Assembly (NCBI GenBank): GCA_946610655.1
Contig: CAMOCH010000003.1
Location: 1-38,104 of the forward strand
DNA from: an uncultured Clostridia bacterium
Lineage (GTDB): Bacteria; Bacillota; Clostridia; Christensenellales; UBA1242
Length of the DNA: 38,104 nucleotides
Reading direction: 5' to 3'
Shown: positions 9,106 to 33,989 of the stretch, piece after piece
Layout of the letters: each line of letters begins with the position of its first letter
Numbering within the stretch: the first letter of the stretch is position 1
Translations under genes and position numbers: made by a program
Notes under the pieces: model-generated
Database searches by the model: none
The model's input: only the letters and a program-made list of their open reading frames with translations
Told to the model about the DNA's origin: nothing

Positions 9106-9374
9106 GTGTTGTGCTAGGTGGGGAGCTAGCGGTGCCCTATTCCTGAGATCCGCTATAGCAGGGCTGAATGCACTTTTAGGCATATGATATGGGTTGCTGC
9201 GTGGTGCAAGCGACGTTGATCCCAAGGTCCTATGCAATAGATCTTTGTGAACCGTGTCAGAGCTTGACGGCAGCAGCACTAAACAAAATCATCTATGTGC
9301 CATAGGGTTGCTTTGGAGTAGTTGGCTACATCATTAACGAATCGGTGTCATGTGACGAAATTTGCGCACAACAC
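9106..9374 (+). ncRNA. ffs: Signal recognition particle RNA, large bacterial type with Alu domain
   Basis: GTGCTAGGTGGGGAGCTAGCGGTGCCC...CCGCTATAGCAGGGC resembles B. subtilis scRNA; S-domain TGTCAG...CAGCAGCA; ends GTGTTGTGC/GCACAACAC are fully complementary; followed by T7. Confidence 0.93.
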
Positions 9375-30351: not shown

Positions 30352-30660
30352 CTATAGTTTAATGTTGATATCAACGCCAGCAGGAAGGTCGATTTTCATA
30401 AGAGAATCAACTGTTTTTGCTGATGGATTGAAGATATCAATAAGTCTTTTGTGTGTTCTCATTTCAAACTGTTCACGGCTATCCTTATGTTTGTGAACTG
30501 AACGCAAAATTGTTACAACTTCTTTTTCAGTTGGCATAGGGATTGGTCCTGATACTTTTGCACCTGCTTTTTTAGCAGTTTCCACAATTCTTGCTGCAGC
30601 TTGATCAACAAGGTCATGGTCATAAGCTCTAAGCTTAATTCTAATTTTTTGTGTTGCCAT
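30352..30660 (-). CDS. rpsJ: 30S ribosomal protein S10
   Basis: [71 protein letters not shown]. Confidence 0.98.
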
Positions 30661-30683
30661 TAACTATCCTCCAATTTTTATTA

Positions 30684-30902
30684 TATCTTTTCTTTGATGA
30701 TGCCTGCGCACACACCCTGGCTTTCAAAGATTGTTTCGCACTGGTCTTGCCAGCACTTGTCAGCAAAAGTTATCCCACATTGGGAGCAGGTAACCTCTTG
30801 CGTCGTCCCGAATGGTTTGGTATGCTCGCTTCTTTCGACTTGCTTAGCAAAGCTAAGTAGTATCGCAAAAGGGCATAAATATCCCAAAGCCACACACGCA
30901 GC
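30684..30902 (-). promoter_or_regulatory. Candidate S10-operon leader RNA, GC-rich with multiple hairpins
   Basis: Sits between a consensus promoter and rpsJ; hairpins CTTAGC/GCTAAG (30843-30857), TCCCA/TGGGA (30773-30785), GTGCTGG/CCAGTGC (30738-30756), CTTTGA/TCAAAG (30692-30729). Confidence 0.6.
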
Positions 30903-30908
30903 GTTTAT

Positions 30909-30937
30909 ATAATACTACACACACGGGTGCGTGTCAA
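30909..30937 (-). promoter_or_regulatory. S10-operon promoter TTGACA-17-TATTAT
   Basis: Minus strand TTGACA (30932-30937), 17-nt spacer, TATTAT (30909-30914). Confidence 0.8.
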
Positions 30938-31010: not shown

Positions 31011-31045
31011 ATTATATATATTGATACGCGCGCATACGTACGTGT

Positions 31046-31080
31046 AATAAAAACCGGCGAAAATTCGTCGGTTTTATGTT
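31046..31080 (-). terminator. Terminator of the CPCC gene
   Basis: AAAACCGACGAATTTTCGCCGGTTTTT on the minus strand; near-copy of the 31644-31676 terminator. Confidence 0.8.
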
Positions 31081-31592
31081 TATCCTTGCATATAATCGGC
31101 ATCTTTAACATCTTTCCAAAGCTTAGTTAATAATATTCCATCAATGTTAGCTTTATTTTCGAAATCTTCTTTTGTTTTAAAAATTTCATAACTTTTACCT
31201 TGTGTGAATTCAATACCATCGTCCACCAATAATACACCATAATACTTATTCTTGTAATAAAACTCTACTTCACTATACATATAGAGAGCTTCGATAAAAT
31301 CATCAAAATCTGGCAAAATTTGTTTACCTTCATTGTATAATCTTTTAGCTTTATTTAAAGAAACCATATTTGGATATTGAACACAATTTGGATTAACCCC
31401 TGGATTTTGCTCCCAACCACATATGTCACACTTTCCTTGTCCAAATTGATCAATATGAACTATGTTATTACAAACATCACAATTTTTAACATTTACTTTT
31501 TCATACGGATCATCATATTTAAAAAATTTAAAATCTTTTTTATTTAATCCTGTAACATTTCTGTTATGTTTTTCCCATTTAAACTGTTTCAT
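31080..31592 (-). CDS. CPCC-type cysteine-rich protein, 170 aa
   Basis: MKQFKWEKHNRNV...NCDVCNNIVHIDQFGQGKCDICGWEQNPGVNPNCVQYPNMVSLNKAKRLYNEGK; start at 31592 with AGGAT RBS. The 31997 ORF start is an artefact of reading through rplA in another frame. Confidence 0.75.
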   Translation of the reverse strand: MKQFKWEKHNRNVTGLNKKDFKFFKYDDPYEKVNVKNCDVCNNIVHIDQFGQGKCDICGWEQNPGVNPNCVQYPNMVSLNKAKRLYNEGKQILPDFDDFIEALYMYSEVEFYYKNKYYGVLLVDDGIEFTQGKSYEIFKTKEDFENKANIDGILLTKLWKDVKDADYMQG

Positions 31593-31643
31593 TTCTTTAT
31601 CCTTTGATGGTATTATATCATATAAACATAATTTTTGTACAAT

Positions 31644-31676
31644 AAAAAACCGACGAAATTCGTCGGTTTTATGTTC
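31644..31676 (-). terminator. Terminator after rplA
   Basis: AAAACCGACGAA/TTCGTCGGTTTT hairpin plus T-run on the minus strand. Confidence 0.85.
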
Positions 31677-33960: not shown

Positions 33961-33989
33961 AATATAACACACGGATGCGTTGTTGTCAA
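33961..33989 (-). promoter_or_regulatory. Promoter of rpmG-secE-nusG-rplKA, TTGACA-17-TATATT
   Basis: Minus strand TTGACA (33984-33989), 17-nt spacer, TATATT (33961-33966). Confidence 0.75.

What the first reader, a model, noticed from the sequence alone, without database searches (positions are those of the whole stretch)
30684..30937. GC-rich, highly structured S10-operon leader (possible L4 target or new r-protein leader class)
Between a consensus promoter and rpsJ lie ~220 nt distinctly richer in GC than the surroundings, a classic sign of structured RNA in an AT-rich genome. At least four good hairpins occur, including GUGCUGG-CAAGA-CCAGUGC, CUUAGC-UUU-GCUAAG, and a nested CUUUGA...UCAAAG element just before the RBS. 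A 70-codon Cys-rich frame (30681-30893: ...VTCSQCGITFADKCWQDQCETIFESQGVCAGIIKEKI) overlaps the same stretch. It has no RBS and uses many G/C third positions unlike the host, so RNA is preferred. A small zinc-binding leader protein is not excluded.
Basis: partly seen in the sequence, partly recalled or inferred. Interest (0 to 1): 0.7.

Follow-up and report, generated by a model that had tools for sequence, protein, structure and literature searches.

The report
Divergent S10-operon leader plus operator-like promoter motif
The GC-rich stretch is a real regulatory RNA in front of the main ribosomal-protein operon, a divergent cousin of a known family, and the promoter just before it carries a conserved 12-letter motif that looks like an undescribed DNA control site shared with a second ribosomal-protein operon.

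Summary
The leader lies between a near-consensus promoter and rpsJ, is richer in GC than its surroundings and is single copy. Bulk folding energy is no better than shuffled sequence (z -0.56), so composition alone proves nothing. Comparison does: 26 relatives outside the window's genus share a three-helix core with strong covariation. A covariance model built from them finds the window at 59.9 bits (E 3.5e-12), with every pair intact. It is the core of Rfam S10-Clostridia (RF03136), although Rfam's own model misses this member. It is therefore a divergent member of a known leader kind, not a new class. The Cys-rich frame is refuted: it is broken or lost in every relative checked. Two things go beyond Rfam. 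First, the core is flanked by a long hairpin (P4) and a helix joining the 5' end to P4's loop. Second, a motif ACACACGG-N4-GTGT accompanies rpsJ across the class. Usually it lies downstream of the core; in the window's clade it sits, mostly reversed, inside the 17-bp promoter spacer. The same motif (10/12) lies in the spacer of the rpmG-secE-nusG-rplKA promoter. I read it as a DNA operator for an unknown regulator; this is inferred, not shown. The RNA's ligand (L4 is likeliest) is untested.

The parts
30909..30937 (-). sigma-70-type promoter of the S10 operon, TTGACA-17-TATTAT (-35 30937-30932, -10 30914-30909)
   Evidence: conserved position in 20+ relatives
30919..30934 (+). motif ACACACGGGTGCGTGT inside the promoter spacer (reads CCGTGTGT towards the -10), operator-like
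   Evidence: nearly invariant in the spacer-site genomes of 7 genera while the inner 4 bases vary
30811..30901 (-). 5' part of the leader: P0 5' arm CUGCG 30901-30897, GGG(A)UAUUUAUGCCC hairpin 30885-30871, CUUAGC/GCUAAG hairpin; extension found in this genus and in genus g50
30733..30810 (-). S10-type leader core: P1 30801-30795/30769-30763 with bulged G 30794 and UUA/UAA, P2 30790-30786/30778-30774, P3 30756-30750/30744-30738
   Evidence: 59.9 bits E 3.5e-12 with a model that excludes this genus
30692..30729 (-). P4 hairpin CUUUGA/UCAAAG; its loop holds CGCAG (30708-30704), complementary to the leader's 5' end CUGCG (P0)
30667..30672 (-). Shine-Dalgarno GGAGGA of rpsJ
30352..30660 (-). rpsJ (uS10), first gene of the S10 operon
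33961..33989 (-). promoter of rpmG-secE-nusG-rplK-rplA, TTGACA-ACAACGCATCCGTGTGT-TATATT, with a second motif site (10/12) at 33967-33982
   Evidence: conserved in congener G002 and six of the other clade genomes

Best explanation
The stretch is the 5' leader RNA of the S10 operon. It is a divergent member of the Firmicutes/Clostridia S10 r-protein leader kind (RF03136 core), with added helices P0 and P4. Most likely an r-protein of the operon in excess over rRNA (L4 by analogy with E. coli) binds the P1-P3 core and lowers expression of the operon. No hairpin followed by a U-tract lies between the promoter and rpsJ in this window, so control at translation initiation, or by factor-assisted termination, is more likely than a simple intrinsic attenuator. 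Shown: transcribed-strand covarying structure, conserved place in front of rpsJ, single copy. Inferred: ligand and mode of control. A second layer, the operator-like motif in the promoter spacer, is given separately as the novel case.
For: 26-sequence alignment without the window's genus: RNAalifold finds P1/P2 unaided, and 8 of 11 pairs show double changes. Counting on P1-P3: 82% paired against 66% in shuffles and 39-47% when slid; 118 cells with double changes against 45. The model finds the window and both congeners, window 59.9 bits with no broken pair, unique in the genome, and 38 of 56 rpsJ regions of the class and phylum. RF03136 rings for relatives in front of rpsJ, three over its cut-off, with the same helices in its alignment. 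P4 arms complementary beyond shuffles (p <= 0.05) in 30 of 85 leaders, about 4 expected; P0 in 25 of 84.
Against: RF03136 itself does not hit the window even at E 10. Folding energy is ordinary. P0 and P4 were tested with a crude helix finder, and in the window alone P4 is not significant. No binding or expression data. Some relatives keep rpsJ without the core (for example L012, L048), so it is not indispensable.
Confidence: 0.88

Rival explanations
1. The 70-codon Cys-rich frame is a real zinc-binding leader protein.
For: Open frame of 77 codons between stops with 7 Cys.
Against: Same frame in congener G002 loses the Cys-rich part by frame shift, in G001 it stops at TYLQG, and it is short or lost in all 18 other clade members. 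Changes follow base pairing.
Confidence: 0.01
2. The ACACACGG-N4-GTGT motif is an RNA element (hairpin ACAC/GUGU) of the leader, not a DNA site; its presence in promoter spacers is accidental or of another origin.
For: In most of the family and class it lies in the transcribed leader, nearly always in the forward orientation, inside the P4 region.
Against: In 22 of 97 rpsJ regions the site starts exactly 3 nt into the -35 hexamer, is 11-12/12, is mostly reversed and is untranscribed. It also sits in rpmG, rplU and infC promoter spacers. Outer pairs show mismatches (AG, CT, CA) and no compensatory changes.
Confidence: 0.25
3. The leader binds uS10 or another protein of the operon rather than L4.
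For: No ligand is stated for the Firmicutes/Clostridia S10 leader in the papers read. E. coli's L4 leader works through an attenuator hairpin that is not seen here.
Against: In E. coli uL4 is the regulator of the S10 operon (PMC10931766).
Confidence: 0.45
4. The stretch is a dispersed repeat or horizontally acquired GC-rich piece.
For: GC contrast.
Against: Single copy in the genome; same place with vertical-looking divergence across the class.
Confidence: 0.01

Closest known systems
Rfam RF03136 S10-Clostridia ribosomal protein leader (Eckert and Weinberg 2020, PMC7247131, which cites Yao et al. 2007 for the Firmicutes S10 leader)
   Same: Position in front of rpsJ; P1 with GAUGA-, GGUU[AG]C- and UUUYCG/UUUUGC-type strands, P2, P3; direct relatives score above or near its cut-off
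   Different: Window scores below detection with RF03136; AU-rich P1, 5' extension, P4 and P0 helices outside the Rfam model; operator-like motif in the promoter
rpsJ motif RLC-47-1 of Peptostreptococcaceae (PMC11109978)
   Same: Candidate leader in the rpsJ 5' UTR of Clostridia
   Different: Reported only from three genera; its figure and alignment are not held, so identity with this core could not be tested
E. coli S10-operon leader regulated by uL4 (PMC10931766)
   Same: Works on the same operon; structured 5' UTR
   Different: E. coli uses an L4/NusA-dependent attenuator hairpin; no terminator-like hairpin with a proper U-tract lies in this leader

Membership tests
RF03136 S10-Clostridia leader | Lies in the 5' UTR of rpsJ | tested here: met
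RF03136 S10-Clostridia leader | P1-P2 irregular hairpin followed by P3, with conserved GGUU[AG]C and GACAA-type segments | tested here: met
   (no broken pair) compared with the RF03136 alignment
RF03136 S10-Clostridia leader | Score at or above the Rfam gathering score 35.1 bits | tested here: not met
   no match to the window even at E 10; relatives reach 32-40 bits
RF03136 S10-Clostridia leader | Continuous homology with sequences that do pass | tested here: met
   Model R1, trained on 26 relatives including three from genomes over the cut-off, gives the window 59.9 bits
RF03136 S10-Clostridia leader | Binds the cognate r-protein and controls the operon | not testable with these tools
   needs experiment
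E. coli-type uL4-dependent S10 attenuator | Intrinsic terminator hairpin with U-tract in the leader | tested here: not met
   only weak sites without a proper U-tract between 30909 and 30660 on the minus strand
rpsJ motif RLC-47-1 | Published consensus | not testable with these tools
   figure and alignment not held

The most novel reading that the evidence does not exclude
In this class of Clostridia-like bacteria the S10 operon has a second, DNA-level control. An unidentified DNA-binding protein recognises ACACMCGG-N4-GTGT. In most of the class the site lies between the RNA leader core and rpsJ, where binding could block elongation. In the window's clade the site has moved into the promoter spacer, where binding would block RNA polymerase, and has spread to the rpmG-secE-nusG-rplKA promoter (and in single relatives to rplU and infC), making a small ribosomal-protein regulon.
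Probability: 0.45. Interest if true: 0.7.

Novelty: new variant of a known kind. Interest (0 to 1): 0.42.

Why it matters
Bacterial r-protein operons are usually thought to be tuned by RNA leaders binding their own products and by growth-rate effects on RNA polymerase. A dedicated operator conserved in front of the S10 operon across a class, and relocated into the promoter spacer in one clade, would imply an unknown transcription factor of ribosome synthesis. It makes a simple test possible. The leader itself widens the S10-Clostridia family to members that Rfam's model cannot see.

Tried and rejected
Rfam at gathering and relaxed thresholds on the window: only chance matches. RF03136's only hit in the own genome (contig C7) is not the rpsJ leader and scores 15.5 bits, E 0.49. 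Minimum-energy z-score as evidence of structure: uninformative. Own-genome sites C43 (inside a long coding frame) and C14 (terminator-like palindrome) with motif-like letters: not promoter sites. Motif in front of rpsL, rplM, rpsB, rplJ, rplS, rpsP, rpsO, rpmA, rpmH, infC and rplU in congener G002: absent or weak. Motif at rpmG outside the clade: absent where rpmG was found; several rpmG genes were not found by the pattern used. Named organisms could not be had: both genome-contig scans failed.

Full report
WHAT IS THERE. On the minus strand the window carries a near-consensus promoter (TTGACA-17-TATTAT, 30937-30909), a leader of about 240 nt, a Shine-Dalgarno and rpsJ, the first gene of a long S10-spc-alpha cluster. 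Leader GC is 0.48-0.50 against about 0.28-0.36 beside it. The sequence is single copy in the 852-kb genome. Its folding energy is no better than dinucleotide shuffles (z -0.56), so the GC contrast by itself would prove nothing.

COMPARISON. I took the region upstream of rpsJ in 36 further genomes of the same genus, family and order. Most show GGG-UGA / P1 (GCNNAAAG...UUUNNGC with a bulged G and UUA/UAA) / P2 / GACAAN-P3-GCGAC. An alignment of 26 sequences without the window's genus gave P1 and P2 from RNAalifold with double changes in 8 of 11 pairs. P1-P3 have 82% standard cells against 66% in shuffles and 39-47% when slid, and a covariation score of 0.54 against 0.24. A model built from it finds the window at 30810-30733 with 59.9 bits, E 3.5e-12, no broken pair, and also both congeners. 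It is the only real hit in the genome. The same model rings in 38 of 56 rpsJ regions from other orders of the class and other classes of the phylum.

IDENTITY. RF03136 (S10-Clostridia ribosomal protein leader) rings at these places in relatives, three of them above its cut-off. Its alignment shows the same P1/P2/P3. The window itself is invisible to RF03136. So by Rfam's threshold it is not a member; by continuous homology and structure it is the same kind, diverged. The S10 leader was published as known in Firmicutes and extended to Clostridia (PMC7247131). A further rpsJ motif, RLC-47-1, was reported in Peptostreptococcaceae (PMC11109978) and could not be compared.

THE CYS-RICH FRAME. Read in the same frame, congener G002 shifts out of it after TCSQCRITFADY and G001 stops after TYLQG. 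The other 18 clade members have short or unrelated frames. It is a by-product of the RNA core.

BEYOND THE RFAM CORE. Right after P3 and just before the Shine-Dalgarno lie complementary arms (P4) with differing sequences in different genera, for example CTAGCTCAAT/ATTGAGTTAG, TTCAAGCGTA/TACGCTTGAA and CCAAACAC/GTGTTTGG; 30 of 85 pass p <= 0.05 where about 4 are expected. The leader's 5' end pairs with a segment in P4's loop: CGCTATAC/GTATAGCG in G143, GCGTAG/CTACGC in G160, CTGCG/CGCAG in the window; 25 of 84 pass p <= 0.05. This suggests a pseudoknot-like closing helix. Both tests are crude and relatives are not independent.

THE PROMOTER MOTIF. Looking at the region between core and rpsJ, I found ACACACGG-N4-GTGT. 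Of 97 family and order rpsJ regions, 80 match 11 or 12 of 12 letters; shuffles of the same regions reached at most 10. In 28 regions from the rest of the class 16 match at 11-12 (mostly ACACCCGG). In 28 regions of other classes none exceeds 9. In most genomes it lies about 40-240 nt before rpsJ, downstream of the core. In the window's clade (genera g1, g23, g40, g43, g50, g56, g57) it is gone from there and sits in the promoter spacer at a fixed place, 3 nt into the -35 hexamer, in reverse in most and forward in G058 and G124. The twelve positions are nearly invariant there while the inner four vary freely. In G006 the reversed motif is in a short leader without the core.

SECOND OPERON. The next best match in the window (10/12) lies in the -35/-10 spacer of the promoter of rpmG-secE-nusG-rplK-rplA (33989-33961). 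It is kept in congener G002 and in six of twelve other clade genomes examined but not seen outside the clade. By itself the window match is not beyond chance (two matches found where 1.1 are expected), and part of it (TGTGT next to the -10) may be an extended -10 element. In 721 kb of G002, among 578 promoter-like sites only the rpsJ and rpmG promoters hold CCGTGTGT. Single relatives have it in promoters of rplU (G057) and infC (G080).

READING. A site that changes strand, moves from transcribed leader to untranscribed promoter spacer, and is shared with another r-protein operon is best read as a DNA site. Its outer halves show mismatches without compensation, which speaks against an RNA hairpin. 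Binding in either place would hinder transcription, so a repressor is the simplest guess. The protein is unknown. All of this is inference from comparison.

LIMITS. No names for the genomes. No ligand, binding or expression data. Clade members share ancestry, so counts are not independent events.

Noticed in passing
window 33967-33982: Second copy of the rpsJ promoter motif in the spacer of the rpmG-secE-nusG-rplK-rplA promoter.
   Followed up: yes
window 9109-9371 (+): Bacterial large SRP RNA (RF01854, 161.9 bits).
   Followed up: no
window 31080-31600 (-): Small gene with a Cys4 (CDVC...CDIC) motif inserted between rplA and rpsJ, framed by near-identical terminator hairpins at 31050-31075 and about 31645-31672.
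   Followed up: no
window 31013-31045; also L003, L012 and L019 upstream of rpsJ: Alternating purine-pyrimidine GC tracts (such as cacgtacgtatgcgcgcgtatc) next to TATATA tracts upstream of rpsJ in several relatives.
   Followed up: no
L171 (G075): Duplicated rpsJ promoter with motif 176 bp upstream, its -10 decayed.
   Followed up: partly
rpsJ leaders of the wider family (for example L008, L011, L014, L031): A run of seven to nine U precedes the P0 3' arm inside P4 in many genera; it is absent in the window's clade.
   Followed up: no
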